From Flavobacteriaceae bacterium (GTDB taxonomy: Bacteria > Bacteroidota > Bacteroidia > Flavobacteriales > Weeksellaceae): a stretch of DNA of 64,000 nucleotides. Made by a program: the position numbers and the translations under genes. The notes under the pieces are model-generated. The model saw only the letters and a list, made by a program, of their open reading frames with translations, made no database searches and was not told the DNA's origin. Each line of letters begins with the position of its first letter. The first letter of the stretch is position 1. This document shows positions 694 through 59,655 of the stretch, one piece after another. Where the stretch lies: assembly GCA_004359435.1 (NCBI GenBank), contig PTET01000001.1:380446-444445 (forward strand). Reading direction: 5' to 3'.

Positions 694-1494
694 ATGAGCG
701 CAGCAGTTACGGTAATTTCCAACGGAATGTATTTTGATGGAACAGGAAAAAAAGGGTCTATCCAAAATGTTCTCATCAAAAACGGAAAAGTAGAAAAAGT
801 AAGCTCCAATCCAATTCAGGTTGAGGGAGCCACAGAAATCGACGCAACGGGAAAATGGGTTATGCCAGGAATGATAGACATCCACACCCACTATGATGCA
901 GAAATTGAAGTAATGCCAGGAATTGAAGAATCTCTTAGACATGGGGTTACCACCTGCATCATGGGAAACTGCTCTCTTTCTGCCGCCATTGGGAAAGACA
1001 CAGACATTGTAGATCTTTTTTGTAGAGTAGAGAACATTCCTGCCCAAAGTTTGAAAGATTGGCTGGTAAACAACATTTCTTGGAAGAGCGTCACAGAATA
1101 CTATCAGCATTTGGACACCCTGAATTTGGGTCCAAATATCGCAACTTTCTTGGGTCACTCCAATGTCCGTATCGAAGCGATGGGACTCAAAAGAAGCCTT
1201 ACAGAAAGAAAGGCCTCAAAAGAGGAAATAAACAAAATGAAAGCCATTGTTAGCGAAGCTGTAGATGCGGGATTTTTGGGACTTTCTATCGATATGCTTC
1301 CTTTCCACAGAATGTCAGGGGTTTTCAGTTCAGAATTTACAGGATTTACAGTTCCATCACAAGTGGCTGCGGTTTCCGAGTACAAACAACTCTCTGAGAT
1401 TCTAAGAGAAAGAGACAAGGTACTTCAAATCACCCCCAATGCCATCAAAAAAACCACCATTTTGGACATTTTTGCCCTGAGTTCTGGTTGGTAA
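694..1494 (+). pseudogene. D-aminoacylase/N-acyl-D-amino-acid deacylase family amidohydrolase, N-terminal part of a broken gene
   Basis: The 266-residue frame is the front half of a D-aminoacylase-type amidohydrolase. It has the small beta-sandwich start, then the metal motif MPGMIDIHTHYD near residue 60, TTCIMGNCS, and LGHSNVR. Reading runs normally to LSEILRERDKVLQITPNA and then stops at TAA after ALSSGW. The rest of the protein continues in another frame from about 1481. Family members are usually about 550 residues; the two pieces sum to roughly 465, so about 100 residues between them are absent. As it stands the enzyme lacks a complete metal-dependent barrel and is probably inactive, or the join is an assembly error. 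Confidence 0.8.
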
Positions 1495-2086
1495 AAGCCA
1501 AATCGGGAAAAATTTCGAGCAGATTGCCAAAGAACTCGGAAAAGATCCAGTGGATACCTTTATGGATTTGATGATGGAATACGACAAAGACATCCGTTGG
1601 AAATGCGACACCGCAAACCACAGACCAGAACAAAGAATGGATTTGCTTTCAGACCCCAATTGCATGCCTGGATTCAACGACTCTGGAGCCCACAACGTAA
1701 ACATGGCTTTCCACGATGGAGGTTTGCAAATGCTTGCCCAAGTGTACGAAAACCAAGACAAAATGAGTATCGAACGCGCCATCCACAGAATCACCAAAGA
1801 AACTGCAGATTTCCTAAACATCGATTGTGGAGACATCTCTGAGGGAAAAACCGCAGATTTAATTGTAGTAGATCCATCCCGTTTTAAAACAGACTTAACC
1901 CTAGAACCTACCGAAGACCACCACCCTATGCTGGAAGGAGGATACAGACTGGTAAAACGCTCTGGAAAAGTGGTTCAACATGTTTTTGTAGGTGGAGAAG
2001 AAGTTTACAAAAACAATGGAACCGTTGGTTTTCACCCAGAACTTGGGAAAAGAAAATTCGGAAAGCTTTTGCGTTCGAAATCTTAA
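1481..2086 (+). pseudogene. D-aminoacylase family amidohydrolase, C-terminal part of the broken gene
   Basis: This frame starts without its own good start codon (a GTG at 1550 is internal to conserved sequence) and carries GKNFEQIAKELGKDPVD, then FNDSGAHNVNM with the aspartate and histidine expected near the active site, then the C-terminal beta-sandwich with GKTADLIVVDPSRF and VFVGGEEVYKNNG. It is the natural continuation of the preceding N-terminal piece in a different frame. An upstream in-frame TGA at 1478-1480 blocks further extension. The segment normally lying between the pieces is missing. Confidence 0.78.
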
Positions 2087-54114: not shown

Positions 54115-54726
54115 ATGAAAGAATCAATTACCATACTAGCCATTGAATCTTCTTGTGATGATACCTCTTGTGCGGTAATAAGAGACGCTAAGGTTTTGTC
54201 AAATCTTATTGCTAACCAAAAAGTGCACGAAAATTATGGGGGTGTGGTGCCAGAATTGGCCTCAAGAGCCCATCAACGAAACATTGTGCCTGTGGTTTCA
54301 AGGGCACTTTCAGAGGCTGGAGTAGATCCCAAACAGTTGGATGCCATTGCATATACCAGAGGGCCAGGACTTATGGGTTCGCTTCTTGTTGGGGCTAGTT
54401 TTGCCAAAAGTTATGCTCAATCTTTGGAGATTCCTCTTATTGAAGTCAACCATTTGCAGGCTCATATTTTGTGCCATTTTATAGACCAAGAAGGTTTTGA
54501 AAAACCGCCTTTTCCTTTTTTGTGTTTAACCGTTTCTGGAGGCCACACACAGATAGTTTTGGTTGAGCAAAATCTTGAGATGAAAGTAGTTGGAAGCACA
54601 CTCGACGATGCCGCCGGTGAGGCTTTTGATAAAATTGGCAAGGCCATGAGAGCAGAACAATGTCTTTTTGTCAAAAGAAGAAAGCCGTCATTTGGTAAAG
54701 GTTCTGCGGGCAAGAATTTCCGATGA
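54115..54726 (+). CDS. tsaD: tRNA threonylcarbamoyladenosine synthase TsaD, C-terminal half missing
   Basis: The frame opens ILAIESSCDDTSCAVI, with HENYGGVVPELASRAHQRNIVPVV, the metal-binding HLQAHI and TRGPGLMGSLLVGASFAKS, SGGHTQIVLV and STLDDAAGEAFDKIGKAM. This is a typical TsaD start to residue 178. It then runs into RsmE sequence out of frame and ends. About 160 residues are missing, including the second half of the ATPase fold. TsaD is needed for t6A37 in tRNA and is essential in most bacteria. A TATTTTTG box ends seven bases before the ATG. Confidence 0.9.
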   Translation: MKESITILAIESSCDDTSCAVIRDAKVLSNLIANQKVHENYGGVVPELASRAHQRNIVPVVSRALSEAGVDPKQLDAIAYTRGPGLMGSLLVGASFAKSYAQSLEIPLIEVNHLQAHILCHFIDQEGFEKPPFPFLCLTVSGGHTQIVLVEQNLEMKVVGSTLDDAAGEAFDKIGKAMRAEQCLFVKRRKPSFGKGSAGKNFR

Positions 54727-55333
54727 ACTTTGGCTAACAGACGGAAAAGGGCTGTTGGCTCATGCAAAGGTGAAAAGCCTAGACCAAAATAGAGCCGAAG
54801 TAGAAATTGTAGAAAGATTTTTTGAGCATCAGAAACCCAAAGCCTATTTGCATTTGGCTCTTGCGCCTACCAAAAGTTTGGATCGATTTGAGTTTTTTGT
54901 TGAGAAAACCACAGAAATAGGAATCCAAAGAATCACCCCTATTTGTTCTGCCAATTCTGAGCGAAAAACCCTCAACCACGAAAGAACCCAAAAGAAGGTG
55001 GAGTCTGCTCTAAAGCAATCTTTGGGCGCCTATTTGCCCCAGTTAGATCTTTTAATTAGTTTGACAGATTTTTTAAATACAACCGATTTTTCTAGCTATA
55101 CCCATCTGTATATCGCGCATTGTAATCCAAATTTTGAAAGGAAAGCCTTGGATGGATTTGCACCTTCTTGCAAAGCCCTTATTCTGATAGGGCCAGAGGG
55201 AGATTTTAGCCCCAAAGAAATTGAGTTGGCTATCCAAAAAGGGTTTACTTGTATTCATTTGGGTGAAAAAAGACTCAGAACAGAAACTGCCGGAATCAAA
55301 ATTGCCACCCTTTTCGACTTTTTAACTGCCTGA
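54668..55333 (+). CDS. rsmE: 16S rRNA (uracil-1498-N3) methyltransferase RsmE, N-terminus missing
   Basis: LSKEESRHLVKVLRARISDELWLTDGKG is the normal PUA-like start of RsmE minus about the first 15 residues. The SPOUT domain follows: LALAPTKSLDRFEFFVEKTTEIGIQRITPI, ALKQSLGAYLPQL, ILIGPEGDFSPKEIELAI and HLGEKRLRTETAGI, the SAM-binding knot. The apparent start is a TTG inside conserved sequence, since the real start was lost where tsaD joins it near 54650. rsmE next to tsaD is a usual order in this group, so only an internal piece is gone. Confidence 0.88.
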   Translation: MSKEESRHLVKVLRARISDELWLTDGKGLLAHAKVKSLDQNRAEVEIVERFFEHQKPKAYLHLALAPTKSLDRFEFFVEKTTEIGIQRITPICSANSERKTLNHERTQKKVESALKQSLGAYLPQLDLLISLTDFLNTTDFSSYTHLYIAHCNPNFERKALDGFAPSCKALILIGPEGDFSPKEIELAIQKGFTCIHLGEKRLRTETAGIKIATLFDFLTA

Positions 55334-55476: not shown

Positions 55477-55859
55477 ATGGAAGATTCATTGATTCAAAAA
55501 GCATTGCCTGCATCTCTAGGAATAATCATGCTCGGAATTGGGCTACACTTAAAACCAAGCGAAATGATATTCTAAAAGAAAATTTTTCCAGAGTTGGATT
55601 GTCTTCCCTTCTTTTTGCGTCTGTGAGTTTGCTTTCGGGGTATATCGCTGGGAAAATTTTCGGTCTGCAAGAAGCACAAAGCAGAGCCATTGCTTTTGAA
55701 ATTGGGATTCACAATTCAGCACTAGCCATTGTGCTTGCTATGGAAATTTTGAAAAGTGAAGTGATGGCGGTTCCCTCTGCGGTGTATTCGCTTTTGATGT
55801 ATCCTATTGCAGCTTTGTTTGGGTTTATGCTAAGTAGGATGGATTCTGCTAAGGTATGA
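55477..55859 (+). pseudogene. bile acid:sodium symporter family (BASS) transporter remnant
   Basis: The ATG at 55477 opens MEDSLIQKALPASLGIIMLGIG with LHLKPSEM, the first helix of a BASS-family transporter, and hits TAA at 55573-55575. A different frame at once continues KENFSRVGLSSLLFASVSL, IGIHNSALAIVLAMEIL and VYSLLMYPIAALFGFML, the family's final helices with the GxHNxxLA-type motif. About 190 residues (six or so helices) are missing, so nothing functional remains. The end at 55859 lies directly against the Rhs fragment. Confidence 0.75.
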
Positions 55860-55862
55860 TGA

Positions 55863-56690
55863 ATTGAGTATACCTACGACTCCAAAATTTGGAGTTGGCT
55901 AAGTGTGGATCCGTTGGCAGAGAAACAACCAGATGTTTCACCGTATGCTTATGTAAATAACAATCCAGTAAGGTACATTGACCCAGATGGAAGGTTTTTG
56001 TTTGATGTTCATAATAGAATTTTAACCAATGCAATAAATATGATGAAAACAAGTTTTTCTAAAGATATTTTAGCTGGAATGGGTTATAATAATAAAATTT
56101 ATAGGGGTGGTATTGTATTTCCCGATCTGAGAGGTGTGGGACCTTTTAGTGGTAAATACGATAAACATGACCATTTTGATTCTATGAATAAAGATCAGAT
56201 TGCGACCAATTTTAATAGAATTGGTTCAGAGGCAAATATGTTGATTAAACAATTTAAATCAGGTTTAATTAGTGAAAATGATTTTGGATTTGGAATCGGC
56301 GAACAAGTTCACGCAATACAAGATTTTTATTCACATTCCAATTTTGTAGAATTATTTGAAGAAGCTGGAGGAGACATAAATGGATTTATTCCAACTTATG
56401 AGGAAGTAATGAATGGTAATAATTATTCCAAACTTAAGGACTTAATTAATTCAGGTAGGTTATTTACAGGTGAATATGATGAAGAAAATCATAAGAGAGG
56501 TCCTGGTTCACATCAAGTTATGAACAAAGATCAAGGTAAAGGTAGCTCGTTAAATTTTCGAGGGTTTCTTTCTGAATTTCTTATTGAAGATGCTCATAAT
56601 AAAGCTCCAACGCCCCAATCACGAGCAGCAGAAAGAGCAGCAGAAAGAGCTACATTTCAATTTTTAAGAAGAGTAAGAGACGATTTATAA
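55863..56690 (+). CDS. Rhs-type polymorphic toxin tail with zinc-phospholipase-C-like C-terminal domain (5' part missing)
   Basis: The frame begins EYTYDSKIWSWLSVDPLAEK and continues PDVSPYAYVNNNPVRYIDPDGR, the conserved end of an Rhs/YD-repeat core whose upstream thousands of bases are absent. A variable domain of about 215 residues follows DPDG. It has HAIQDFYSHSNFVEL (56310-56354), HQVMNKD (56511-56531), a KHDHFD cluster and EDAHNKA ahead of RAAERATFQFLRRV. These histidine/aspartate motifs, in this order, are those of zinc-dependent phospholipase C-like/Het-C-like proteins. An Rhs tip of this kind would act as a membrane-attacking toxin in contact competition. Catalysis is inference. Confidence 0.75.
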   Translation: MEYTYDSKIWSWLSVDPLAEKQPDVSPYAYVNNNPVRYIDPDGRFLFDVHNRILTNAINMMKTSFSKDILAGMGYNNKIYRGGIVFPDLRGVGPFSGKYDKHDHFDSMNKDQIATNFNRIGSEANMLIKQFKSGLISENDFGFGIGEQVHAIQDFYSHSNFVELFEEAGGDINGFIPTYEEVMNGNNYSKLKDLINSGRLFTGEYDEENHKRGPGSHQVMNKDQGKGSSLNFRGFLSEFLIEDAHNKAPTPQSRAAERAAERATFQFLRRVRDDL

Positions 56691-57082
56691 TGAAAAGATA
56701 TTTCAAAATACTTTGTATTGGATGGTTTTTGACATATCTTTTTGTCAAATTAAACATAAAAGACAGCTTTTTATTTGCACATATTAAATATAGAGCAGTT
56801 AATTCTGGTATATACTCTTATTGTTTAATTATGTTGGTTTGTGCCTTTTTTTTTGAAAAAAGACTGAGAGCAATTTTGTTAATTGTACCTGCATTTTTAT
56901 TAGTTATTTCTTTTGTTATGTTTTTTCCATATTCATCAGAAATTATAAAGATTTTTGATGGATTTGATCCATTATATGGAATGACAATTTCAACTTTGTT
57001 AGCTTTGTTTTTTTTAGATTTTTTATTCAATAAATTTTGGACTAGCTACCATCAAACAATAACCCCTAAACCCAACCAATAA
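56690..57082 (+). CDS. four-helix membrane protein, candidate immunity protein
   Basis: The start ATG shares a base with the toxin gene's stop codon (TAATG), which indicates coupled translation. The 130-residue product is strongly hydrophobic with about four membrane segments (near 5-20, 40-55, 62-80 and 98-114) and a short charged tail. I recognise no family. Position after a polymorphic toxin domain, small size and membrane location fit an immunity protein against a phospholipase-like effector, but this rests on context only. Confidence 0.65.
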   Translation: MKRYFKILCIGWFLTYLFVKLNIKDSFLFAHIKYRAVNSGIYSYCLIMLVCAFFFEKRLRAILLIVPAFLLVISFVMFFPYSSEIIKIFDGFDPLYGMTISTLLALFFLDFLFNKFWTSYHQTITPKPNQ

Positions 57083-57200: not shown

Positions 57201-57386
57201 TTATAGAGTAGCGACATTTTTGGAGAAGAAGTCTTTGAAGCGTTTGTTAGTGAGCATTTTGTCCACGAGTTTGAAGATGGTTGGTCTTTTTCTTCGAGTT
57301 GTGCGATGCGTTTGAGTTGTTCTTAAGACGTATTTGTCTTCTAAGCATTTTGTTTGGGATGATGACTTCTTGTGGTATGCCAACTT
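57201..57386 (-). pseudogene. degenerate C-terminal remnant of an XRE-type regulator, copy A
   Basis: On the minus strand the last residues IFKLVDKMLTNKRFKDFF followed by SKNVATL match the C-terminus of flavobacterial XRE-family regulators. Upstream the match continues only with frame changes (GIPQEVI in another frame), and no helix-turn-helix part exists. It is a clear sequence copy of the remnant at 57974-58145. Confidence 0.6.
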
Positions 57387-57389
57387 TTG

Positions 57390-57414
57390 CGGTCACTGAG
57401 GCTCTCGAAGTGAC
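57390..57414. repeat. palindromic repeat, copy 1
   Basis: GGTCACT ... AGTGACC arms enclose GAGGCTCTCGA. This is close to a short imperfect palindrome dispersed in many bacterial genomes (CACTGAG..TCGAAGTG). Confidence 0.6.
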
Positions 57415-57476
57415 CTTTTCCAAGGACAAAAACACGAAGTAAACTGCCGATGCCTGCGGTTGCTGGGGTTTTCGAT

Positions 57477-57973: not shown

Positions 57974-58145
57974 TTAGAGGGTGGCGACGTTTTTGGAAAA
58001 GAAGTCTTTAAAACGTTTGTTTGTGAGCATTTTGTCCACGAGTTTAAAGATGGTTTGCTTGTCATCTTCTTCGAGTTGAGAAATGAGTTTCAATTGCTCT
58101 GAAGCATGTTTGTCTTCGATGATGACTTCTTGGGGTATGCCACTA
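57974..58145 (-). pseudogene. C-terminal remnant of an XRE-type regulator, copy B
   Basis: The minus strand reads GIPQEVIIEDKHASEQLKLI, SQLEEDDKQTIFKLVDKMLT and NKRFKDFFSKNVATL followed by a stop, the intact C-terminal 55 or so residues of a flavobacterial XRE-family regulator. The DNA-binding half is missing, and the frame beyond about 58145 runs into the end of the regulator gene at 58174. It is better preserved than copy A. Confidence 0.65.
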
Positions 58146-58173
58146 AAGTGTTGCCCTTCGAGAGCCCACAAAA

Positions 58174-59655
58174 TCACCCAAAAGAAAGCTTCAATTTTTC
58201 TATGGAGGCTTCTTTGGTTTTTTCTCTTTGTTCTTTTTGCAGTTTTAGCGGTGGGCTTACTCTTTCCCCGCAGTTTTCAACGCTACAAGATTCGCAGGTT
58301 ACCCCAACCTGTCTTTGGGTGATATTTGGGTCTTCCAAAAAGTGAATGAGTTTTTTGGATTTTTCACCGATGAGAAGTCCAATCGAAACACTTCTGAGCA
58401 TATTTTCTGAGCTGTGGTCTTTGGTTACTGTGGTGAAAATTAGGTATTTGTCACCAAGTGGATACTGAGAAATCTGGCAGTCTGTAAGGTAGGGTTGGTT
58501 GTCCAGTTCTTTGAAACGATTGAATAGGGTAATAGAAAGCCATCTTCTGCAATAGTGTTCTAGGGTTTCATTGGCATGAGGTGAGGTGTTTTGGGAAAGG
58601 TGCAACTCTTTGGTGATGTGGTATTCTTGGGTGTTTAAGACATAGGACATGCGGATAAAAAACAAATCATTCACCTTAAAATGCACAGAGAGCAAATTGC
58701 TGATTCTCTGGTAAAAAGTCTCTGGAGACTGGGTAAATTGGGTCATCAGAGAATTGAACAAAATTGGATTCCATTTGGGCTCCATGAAGAATTCTTCTAG
58801 TTTTTGTAAGACAGCCATTTTGGGAATCAAAAGGGCACCAGCAAAATAGGAGTGGTAGAAATTGTGGAGTAGTGGGTCGAAACTGTTGTGTTTGGCCCAT
58901 GGAAAGGTGTACAATCTTTCGGGAGATTCCAAAAAGTGGTATCCGATTTCTTTGGCATAAATGAATTCCAGATGGATGTCTTGTGCACATTCATTGATAA
59001 GTAGGGTTTTGTTTTTCTCCAAATAGATAGAGCGTAGATTTTCCAGCTCTTCACCATGGGAAGAAAAATCCAGTTTTTTGATGGAATAACCATATTCTTC
59101 CTCCAAAATGGATTCCAGAAAAAACAAACTTGGGGTAACATCGTTTTTGGTTCTGTAACGCAGGTTAAAGAGTTCTACCTTTTTTTCTATCTCTTCAAAA
59201 TAATTTCGATTGGCTTCTTGGTAAGAGCGAAGGGCAGCCAAAAAGAAGTTTTCACGGGTTAGGTTGTAGTGATTTCCAATTTCAATCAAAGTACTCAAAA
59301 ATGCCGTGACTTTGATGGGAGCCTCTGCGATGATGTCAATCAAATCTCTTTCTTCAATCCCGAAAAGTTCCAGCGGAATTTCTTTGAGTATGTTGGATTC
59401 CAAAATTTGACCGATGGGAGAGAGGTTTTGGTCTAGCTTTTTGGAGATGAGCATTGCACTTGTGGTTTTCAGTGCAGTGGCAAGAAGCTCTATTTTGTCT
59501 TCTTTGGGATATTTTTTTCCTTTTTCAATCTCGTTGAGGTAAGATTTGGAAAGTCCAGTGAGTTTGGAGAGTTTGAAAAGAGACAAATCTTGCTGGGTGC
59601 GAATTTGTTTTACTTTGAGTCCAAAAATAATCTTCAGGTGGTCTTCTTTCTTCAT
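58174..59655 (-). CDS. RamB/ScfR-like transcriptional regulator of acetate/glyoxylate genes
   Basis: The 493-residue protein starts with an XRE helix-turn-helix (about residues 10-65, QDLSLFKLSKLTGLSKSYLNEIEKG). A long central domain of the IrrE/ImmA-like type without a HExxH motif follows. The C-terminal cysteine motif CESCSVENCGERVSPP (about 450-465) is typical of RamB/short-chain fatty acyl regulators. Those control acetate and propionate use, including glyoxylate-shunt genes. It is divergently transcribed from aceB-aceA across 103 bases that contain a 20-base palindrome, so regulation of that operon is a strong inference; activator or repressor mode is open. Confidence 0.85.
   Translation of the reverse strand: MKKEDHLKIIFGLKVKQIRTQQDLSLFKLSKLTGLSKSYLNEIEKGKKYPKEDKIELLATALKTTSAMLISKKLDQNLSPIGQILESNILKEIPLELFGIEERDLIDIIAEAPIKVTAFLSTLIEIGNHYNLTRENFFLAALRSYQEANRNYFEEIEKKVELFNLRYRTKNDVTPSLFFLESILEEEYGYSIKKLDFSSHGEELENLRSIYLEKNKTLLINECAQDIHLEFIYAKEIGYHFLESPERLYTFPWAKHNSFDPLLHNFYHSYFAGALLIPKMAVLQKLEEFFMEPKWNPILFNSLMTQFTQSPETFYQRISNLLSVHFKVNDLFFIRMSYVLNTQEYHITKELHLSQNTSPHANETLEHYCRRWLSITLFNRFKELDNQPYLTDCQISQYPLGDKYLIFTTVTKDHSSENMLRSVSIGLLIGEKSKKLIHFLEDPNITQRQVGVTCESCSVENCGERVSPPLKLQKEQREKTKEASIEKLKLSFG

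What the first reader, a model, noticed from the sequence alone, without database searches (positions are those of the whole stretch)
55863..57082. Rhs toxin tip with zinc-phospholipase-like domain and a coupled four-helix membrane protein
An Rhs core end (DPLAEK...YIDPDGR) is followed by a domain with HAIQDFYSHSN, HQVMNKD and further His/Asp clusters like those of zinc-dependent phospholipase C/Het-C-like proteins. The next gene starts on the toxin's stop codon and encodes a small membrane protein. A lipid-attacking effector with a membrane-embedded immunity protein is a coherent, testable pair that I have not seen described for this combination.
Basis: partly seen in the sequence, partly recalled or inferred. 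Interest (0 to 1): 0.62.

Follow-up and report, generated by a model that had tools for sequence, protein, structure and literature searches.

The report
Rhs-delivered zinc-enzyme toxin and membrane partner
This stretch is a detached bacterial weapon cassette: a toxin tip built like zinc phospholipases, followed by a small membrane protein that probably protects the producer, and its sequence suggests that the delivery protein's own self-cutting step creates the toxin's metal-binding end and so switches it on.

Summary
In detail: a truncated Rhs core (55863-55994) runs into a 231-aa helical domain (55995-56687), and its stop codon overlaps the start of a 130-aa membrane protein. A profile built only from non-Rhs relatives finds the tip at E=9.9e-24. 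All six Tox-HET-C motif elements are present, and the AlphaFold model (pLDDT 84) matches only zinc-PLC/S1-P1 structures at the top of Foldseek, though weakly. Six Rhs tips of this kind (four clear relatives, two by motif only) are each followed by a polytopic membrane protein (4) or a lipoprotein (2); polytopic neighbours follow 1 of 36 other Rhs tips (p=0.0006). The Rhs "5' part" is probably not lost from the assembly: tandem orphan core-tip-immunity cassettes are usual in this family. The new point concerns the N-terminus. In these enzymes residue 1 binds the metal, and one extra residue kills Listeria PC-PLC. Relatives fix an aromatic or Met as residue 1 by signal-peptidase cleavage or by the start codon. 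In all six Rhs tips the known Rhs autocleavage position (DPxGx|) falls exactly there (Phe/Tyr1, His6). I infer a zymogen activated by Rhs self-cleavage. Phospholipase activity is likely; a nuclease is not excluded. Nothing was tested at the bench.

The parts
55863..55994 (+). Truncated distal Rhs core (WLSVDPLAEK...NNNPVRYIDPDGR) with both putative aspartyl-autoprotease Asp residues (55908-55910 and 55980-55982) and the PxxxxDPxG consensus
   Evidence: TIGR03696 E 1.4e-9, model positions 38-75 of 76. Consensus PxxxxDPxG[W/L/F] and catalytic Asp pair as in RhsA (PMC8765631). No own start codon except an internal GTG at 55905.
55992..55997 (+). Predicted Rhs autocleavage position DPDGR|F: Arg (55992-55994) / Phe (55995-55997); Phe would be residue 1 of the released enzyme, with the first conserved His (56010-56012) as residue 6
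   Evidence: Position by homology with P. laumondii Rhs1 (cut after DPLGL) and RhsA (W1350). Same join in L012, L013, L022, L194/L171 and L195/L096.
55995..56687 (+). Toxin tip: all-alpha domain of the VWA7_N/Het-C/zinc-PLC/S1-P1 superfamily
   Evidence: Non-Rhs profile E 9.9e-24. AlphaFold2 pLDDT 84.3, pTM 0.85. Foldseek PDB top 11 all zinc-PLC or S1/P1/TBN1, best prob 0.91, no E<1e-3.
56010..56012 (+). Conserved His (H14 in A4 numbering, His6 of the mature enzyme), predicted metal ligand
   Evidence: near-invariant column
56124..56126 (+). Conserved Asp (D52), predicted metal ligand
   Evidence: near-invariant column
56172..56180 (+). HFD motif (H68, D70), predicted metal ligand
   Evidence: near-invariant columns
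56310..56336 (+). HAIQDFYSH = HxxxDxxxH (H114, D118, H122), predicted metal ligands
   Evidence: near-invariant columns; matches the Tox-HET-C motif of PMC3482391
56511..56531 (+). HQVMNKD (H181, D187), predicted last ligands of the metal cluster
   Evidence: D187 near-invariant; H181 conserved in most
56690..57082 (+). 130-aa polytopic membrane protein, candidate immunity protein, start overlaps toxin stop by 1 base
   Evidence: helices 2-22, 28-54, 57-78, 94-124 in a low-confidence model (pLDDT 64). No Pfam/NCBIfam/PADLOC match above chance. No credible relatives in 395 class and 346 order genomes.

Best explanation
The locus is an orphan (displaced) Rhs toxin-immunity cassette of a Bacteroidota bacterium. 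The tip is a metal-dependent phosphodiesterase of the zinc-PLC/S1-P1 superfamily, most likely a phospholipase that attacks target-cell membranes, and the overlapping gene encodes its membrane-embedded immunity protein. When such a tip sits on a full Rhs shell it is delivered as a zymogen. The Rhs aspartyl autoprotease cuts after DPxGx and so exposes Phe/Tyr as residue 1, whose main-chain atoms complete the metal cluster with His6 and the other conserved His/Asp residues. Shown here by sequence: family, motif set, register and recurrence of an envelope partner. Inferred: catalytic activity, phospholipid as substrate, cleavage position in Bacteroidota Rhs, activation by cleavage, and immunity function. 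This copy has no shell of its own and is probably silent unless it recombines onto an Rhs gene. Component confidences: superfamily 0.93, toxin-immunity pair 0.85, orphan cassette 0.8, phospholipase rather than another substrate 0.6, activation by cleavage 0.55.
For: Independent non-Rhs profile E 9.9e-24. All eight superfamily His/Asp positions conserved in A4. Fold hits are only zinc-PLC and S1/P1/TBN1 at ranks 1-11. Four secure Rhs tips (window, L012, L013, L022) plus two motif-level ones (L194, L195) each have an envelope protein next. Polytopic next gene 4/6 vs 1/36 background Rhs tips, Fisher p=0.0006. Register: in all six, D-x-x-G-x is followed at once by F/Y and by His at position 6; among 69 other Rhs core ends both occur once, and that one (L171) proved to carry HxxxDxxxH. 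Leaderless relatives have Met1-x4-His6 in 11/11, all with a second residue predicted to keep Met1. Secreted relatives have Phe at signal-peptidase +1. Literature: S1 zinc cluster bound by the N-terminal main chain (PMC5201275); in Listeria PC-PLC only W1F keeps activity and one added residue abolishes it (PMC10576769); Rhs cut right after DPLGL or at DPxGW (PMC8636562, PMC8765631). Orphan cassettes are common in the family.
Against: No curated Pfam family passes its cut-off for the window tip. Foldseek E-values are weak (best 0.043) with TM about 0.4. Lipoprotein or membrane neighbours are common after any Rhs tip in this family (22/36 envelope; p=0.07 for envelope alone). The four polytopic partners are not demonstrably homologous (for one pair). 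Six tips are few and four of them are related, so the register is not six independent events. The Rhs cleavage position is known from T6SS Rhs proteins, not from Bacteroidota. L194 and L195 rest on motif only (DUF6765 at E 0.003 and 0.25).
Confidence: 0.6

Rival explanations
1. The tip is an S1/P1-type nuclease (same metal cluster, nucleic acid as substrate), and the membrane protein blocks entry or binds it at the membrane.
For: S1, TBN1 and P1 nucleases are Foldseek ranks 9-11 and SmNuc1 follows. F1-x4-H6 spacing recalls the W1/H6 pair of P1 nuclease (own knowledge). Zhang 2012 left nuclease or phospholipase open for Het-C.
Against: Ranks 1-8 are clostridial zinc-PLCs. Zn_dep_PLPC, not S1-P1 nuclease, is the Pfam family that appears, if weakly. 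The partner is a polytopic membrane protein more often than for other tips.
Confidence: 0.22
2. The domain is a non-catalytic VWA7_N-like or lipid-binding tip, or acts on eukaryotic predators, and the membrane protein is unrelated to immunity.
For: The nearest curated family is VWA7_N, whose function is unknown. Many relatives are secreted VWA proteins.
Against: All putative ligands are retained across 21 divergent sequences. The next-gene coupling (1-base overlap here, L022 overlapping start) is typical of toxin-immunity pairs.
Confidence: 0.1
3. The window copy is debris: a dead remnant or an assembly junction, not a functional cassette.
For: The core is shorter than in other orphan cassettes (starts at model position 38). 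Upstream lie a bass-family transporter remnant with an internal deletion and a tsaD fragment joined to rsmE. The assembly is 83% complete.
Against: Tip and partner are both intact, start/stop overlapped, with all metal ligands present. Relatives carry tandem orphan cassettes, and the same genome has another orphan tip plus lipoprotein.
Confidence: 0.2
4. The exact register of DPxGx and residue 1 reflects one ancestral fusion that was inherited, without functional meaning.
For: Four of the six tips are homologous at 26-42% identity, so they may share one fusion event.
Against: L171/L194 and L195 are not found by the family profile yet keep the same register. Zero linker is kept although sequences around it diverge. 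The same residue-1 rule holds in leaderless and secreted relatives.
Confidence: 0.3

Closest known systems
Tox-HET-C (Zhang et al. 2012, PMC3482391)
   Same: All-alpha domain with H, [DE], HxD, HxxxDxxxH, Nxx[DE], [ST]G; all six elements found in the window tip; predicted relative of zinc-PLC and S1-P1
   Different: There: PVC/T6SS/T2SS-linked, no immunity protein known, not listed for Bacteroidetes. Here: Rhs tip in Bacteroidota with a coupled membrane partner and a defined N-terminal register. Pfam Het-C itself scores only about 11 bits (cut-off 21).
Pfam VWA7_N (PF25107)
   Same: Nearest curated family; relatives L013, L014, L016 and L022 pass its cut-off; the window scores 26.1-26.7 against 27.5
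   Different: VWA7 proteins are secreted with VWA domains; the window tip is Rhs-borne and just below the cut-off
YdjM-domain Rhs tips (PMC8557891)
   Same: PLC/alpha-toxin/Het-C-related domain used as an Rhs tip
   Different: A different domain family; the N-terminal register was not discussed in the passages read
Zinc-dependent phospholipase C (Listeria PC-PLC, clostridial alpha-toxins)
   Same: Fold, comparable metal-ligand set, aromatic residue 1; W1F is tolerated in Listeria PC-PLC (PMC10576769)
   Different: Pfam Zn_dep_PLPC 17-18 bits (cut-off 26.8); the last acidic ligand is an Asp at H+6; release would be by Rhs autocleavage, not by a separate protease
S1/P1 nucleases
   Same: Same superfamily and N-terminal metal coordination (PMC5201275); Foldseek ranks 9-11
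   Different: No Pfam S1-P1 match; nucleobase-binding sites not assessed
Orphan Rhs-CT/immunity cassettes
   Same: Short core segment, tip and immunity gene without shell or N-terminus; tandem arrays in relatives
   Different: The core piece here is shorter than most and is of a different type from the one full-length Rhs of this genome

Membership tests
Rhs polymorphic toxin (tip of) | Rhs-associated core ending in PxxxxDPxG before a variable tip | tested here: met
   TIGR03696 38.3 bits over cut-off 32.5, positions 38-75; PVRYIDPDG present
Rhs polymorphic toxin (tip of) | RHS/YD repeat shell and delivery N-terminus | tested here: not met
   Frame opens at 55863; no repeats upstream; only one full-length Rhs in the genome, at C1:840202-847407, with another core type
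Rhs polymorphic toxin (tip of) | Adjacent immunity gene | tested here: inconclusive
   Overlapping downstream gene present; envelope proteins follow 6/6 tips of this kind; protective function not tested
Tox-HET-C | H, [DE], HxD, HxxxDxxxH, Nxx[DE], [ST]G | tested here: met
   H14, D52, H68-F-D70, H114/D118/H122, N124-F-V-E127, T166-G167 (numbering; motif list)
Tox-HET-C | Score over Pfam Het-C cut-off | tested here: not met
   10.8-11.1 bits vs 21
Pfam VWA7_N | Score over curated cut-off 27.5 | tested here: not met
   26.1-26.7 bits; close Rhs relatives L013 34.2 and L022 30.0 pass
Zinc-dependent phospholipase C | Score over Pfam Zn_dep_PLPC cut-off | tested here: not met
   17.2-17.8 bits vs 26.8
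Zinc-dependent phospholipase C | PLC/P1-like all-alpha fold | tested here: inconclusive
   Top 11 PDB matches all of this superfamily, prob up to 0.91, but best E 0.043 and TM about 0.4
Zinc-dependent phospholipase C | Free aromatic N-terminal residue bound to the metal cluster | tested here: inconclusive
   Phe lies exactly after the known Rhs cut position and 5 residues before the first His; cleavage not shown
Zinc-dependent phospholipase C | Phospholipid hydrolysis | not testable with these tools
   needs enzyme assay
S1/P1 nuclease | Sequence match to the nuclease family | tested here: not met
   no S1-P1 nuclease family among Pfam matches up to E 5
T6SS effector | T6SS in the same genome | tested here: not met
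   no VipB in the 83%-complete genome; T9SS SprA present

The most novel reading that the evidence does not exclude
The Rhs aspartyl autoprotease does more than release its cargo here: by cutting exactly before Phe/Tyr it manufactures the metal-binding N-terminus of the toxin, so that shell cleavage and enzyme activation are one event. The fusion point of metallo-hydrolase tips is therefore fixed to the residue, and the same residue-1 rule is met by three different routes in one family (start Met, signal peptidase, Rhs autoprotease).
Probability: 0.5. Interest if true: 0.75.

Novelty: new variant of a known kind. Interest (0 to 1): 0.6.

Why it matters
Rhs self-cleavage is known to be needed for toxicity and is explained as release from the cage. 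For this class of tips the sequence predicts a second, chemical reason: the cut completes the active site. That is a simple self-protection device (an enzyme that cannot work until cut) and gives a residue-exact rule for recognising further tips of this kind; the rule already picked out one (L171) that the profile had missed. It also gives Tox-HET-C-like domains, for which no immunity protein was listed in 2012, a recurring envelope partner.

Tried and rejected
Relatives of the tip in plasmids, phages and viral contigs: none with the window tip or L005 tip; one distant VWA7-type viral contig, L081. PDB sequence searches: two chance hits for the tip, none for the profile. Viral fold library: no useful match. 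Weak genome hits of the 130-aa protein (L007, L008, L099-L104) inspected in L007, L008, L099 and L103: overlaps with unrelated ORFs or transporters, rejected as chance. DNA-level match of the window core to the genome's other Rhs loci: none. Envelope location of the partner taken alone as evidence: rejected as weak, since 22/36 background tips also have such neighbours. A regex for signal-peptide counts mis-assigned many sites, and the residue offset was off by one; the listing, the AxA|F count and the corrected count were used instead. Searches failed on input or on rules.

Full report
WHAT IS THERE. The frame 55863-56690 is open for 275 aa. It starts directly after a stop and begins with the distal half of an Rhs core (WLSVDPLAEKQPDVSPYAYVNNNPVRYIDPDGR), which passes the TIGR03696 cut-off although only model positions 38-75 are present. 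The remaining 231 residues form the tip. The stop TAA (56688-56690) overlaps the ATG of the next gene by one base; that gene encodes a 130-aa hydrophobic protein with 3-4 probable membrane helices.

IS IT MORE THAN CHANCE. Single Pfam scores are weak: VWA7_N 26.1-26.7 (cut-off 27.5), Zn_dep_PLPC 17-18 (26.8), Het-C about 11 (21). A scan of 84,980 genomes returned 69 loci with relatives. Leaving out the window and every Rhs-linked sequence, a profile of 16 relatives finds the window ORF at E 9.9e-24, with no other window ORF and no background Rhs-locus ORF hit. In the 21-row alignment H14, D52, H68, D70, H114, D118, H122 and D187 are near-invariant (numbering from 55971). These match the Tox-HET-C motif list of Zhang et al. 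2012. The AlphaFold2 model is all-alpha (pLDDT 84.3, pTM 0.85). Its eleven best PDB matches are all zinc-PLC or S1/P1-type enzymes; E-values are modest (best 0.043, highest prob 0.91). I take superfamily membership as established and substrate as open.

SURROUNDINGS AND RELATIVES. Secure Rhs-borne relatives are L012 (36-42% identity; its tip carries an in-frame TAG), L013 and L022. L012 is followed by a 127-aa protein with four membrane helices. L013 and L022 are followed by lipoproteins that are homologous to each other (25%, E 5e-10); in L022 the genes overlap. Two more tips, L194 (contains L171) and L195 (contains L096), from genomes of the same family as the window genome, keep the His/Asp pattern but are not found by the family profile and touch only DUF6765 weakly; I count them as motif-level members. 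They are followed by small proteins with about three and two membrane helices. As background I took 40 other Rhs tips of related genomes, 36 of them parseable: 22 have an envelope protein next, but only one is polytopic. Polytopic partners, 4/6 against 1/36, give p=0.0006; envelope location alone gives p=0.07. The 130-aa protein has no credible relatives in 395 genomes of the class and 346 of the order, as expected of a fast-changing immunity gene.

ORPHAN CASSETTE, NOT A HALF-LOST GENE. The window genome holds one full-length Rhs (2401 aa, signal peptide, a different core type, three-helix membrane protein next) and a second orphan tip with a lipoprotein. Related genomes carry many short core-tip frames in tandem. 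The window cassette is thus ordinary in form, though its core is shorter than most. Upstream lie a bass-type transporter remnant and a tsaD fragment joined to rsmE, so the junction itself needs reads. No T6SS sheath gene was found and T9SS SprA is present, so T6SS delivery is unlikely here; the route is not shown.

THE N-TERMINUS. In S1 nuclease the zinc cluster is bound by the main chain of the N-terminal Trp (PMC5201275). In Listeria PC-PLC all W1 substitutions except W1F lower activity, and one added residue abolishes it (PMC10576769). In the present family residue 1 is fixed by different routes. Eleven of eleven leaderless relatives have Met1-x4-His6, with Met predicted to be retained from the nature of residue 2. 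Secreted relatives have Phe directly after an AxA-type signal-peptidase site (37 clear cases), and in about 15 of those listed the first His is residue 6; in the others, mostly VWA7-type proteins, it lies further on. In Rhs proteins of T6SS the C-terminal self-cut lies directly after DPLGL (Leu1342|Ala1343 in P. laumondii Rhs1) or at DPxGW (RhsA W1350). In all six tips the residue after D-x-x-G-x is aromatic and the sixth is His: DPDGR|FLFDVH (window), DPSGD|FLLDVH (L012), DKNGE|FTIGVH (L013), DRDGK|FKIPIH (L022), DADGL|YETDGH (L194), DKNGD|YAVSVH (L195). All six also keep both core Asp residues. Among 69 core ends of related genomes, 11 have an aromatic there, 5 have His at position 6, and only one has both: that one was L171, which on inspection carries HYFGDSYAH (HxxxDxxxH) and so is another tip of this kind. 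The register therefore predicted a member that the profile had missed.

HOW IT MOST LIKELY WORKS. Tip on a full Rhs shell: enzyme folded inside the cage, N-terminus still tied to the core, so the metal cluster is incomplete. Self-cleavage after DPxGx frees Phe1/Tyr1, the cluster closes, and the released enzyme attacks membrane phospholipid. The producer is protected by a membrane-embedded or lipid-anchored partner made from the overlapping or next gene. Steps shown: family, motif, register, gene coupling. Steps inferred: catalysis, substrate, cut position in this lineage, activation, protection. The main rival for the substrate is nucleic acid (S1/P1-type). The main rival for the register is inheritance of a single fusion without functional meaning; the two divergent tips speak against that but do not exclude it.

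NOVELTY. Het-C-type toxin domains and a related Rhs tip (YdjM) were predicted before. New, as far as the searches show, are the Bacteroidota Rhs form, its polytopic/lipoprotein partners and the residue-exact match between the Rhs cut and the enzyme's residue 1. The literature held is open-access only, so earlier mention elsewhere cannot be excluded. Verdict: new variant of a known kind, interest 0.6.

Noticed in passing
window 54115-55333: tsaD is cut at about residue 178 and runs into rsmE (whose start appears trimmed); tsaD is normally essential, so this is either an assembly join or a second copy exists.
   Followed up: partly
window 55478-55859: Bass-family transporter reduced to N- and C-terminal pieces with the middle missing, directly upstream of the Rhs core piece
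   Followed up: partly
window 57201-57435 and 57974-58177 (minus strand): Two copies (84-nt repeat, 89%) of a small regulator-like C-terminal fragment '...FKLVDKMLTNKRFKDFFSKNVATL'; a similar fragment (IDKMLTTKKFKDFFNKNVAAL) lies downstream of the Rhs tip in L096 (2428-2670, minus strand), suggesting that such remnants accompany orphan Rhs cassettes.
   Followed up: partly
G000:C1:840202-847407 (L091:2703-9908): Only full-length Rhs of this genome: 2401 aa with signal peptide, hydrophobic tip, 162-aa three-helix membrane protein next; the upstream gene carries a T9SS type A sorting domain.
   Followed up: partly
G000:C3 (L092:1692-2465 and 1260-1679, minus strand): Second orphan Rhs tip with a short core remnant, followed by a 139-aa lipoprotein
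   Followed up: partly
L012:6409-6411: In-frame TAG inside the closest relative's tip, directly after the QDLYSHSNYV motif; that copy may be dead or a sequencing error.
   Followed up: no
L015, L017, L018, L040, L045, L048, L049, L062: Chloroflexi/Anaerolineae encode leaderless, free-standing relatives of about 215 aa with all conserved residues; their role is unknown.
   Followed up: no
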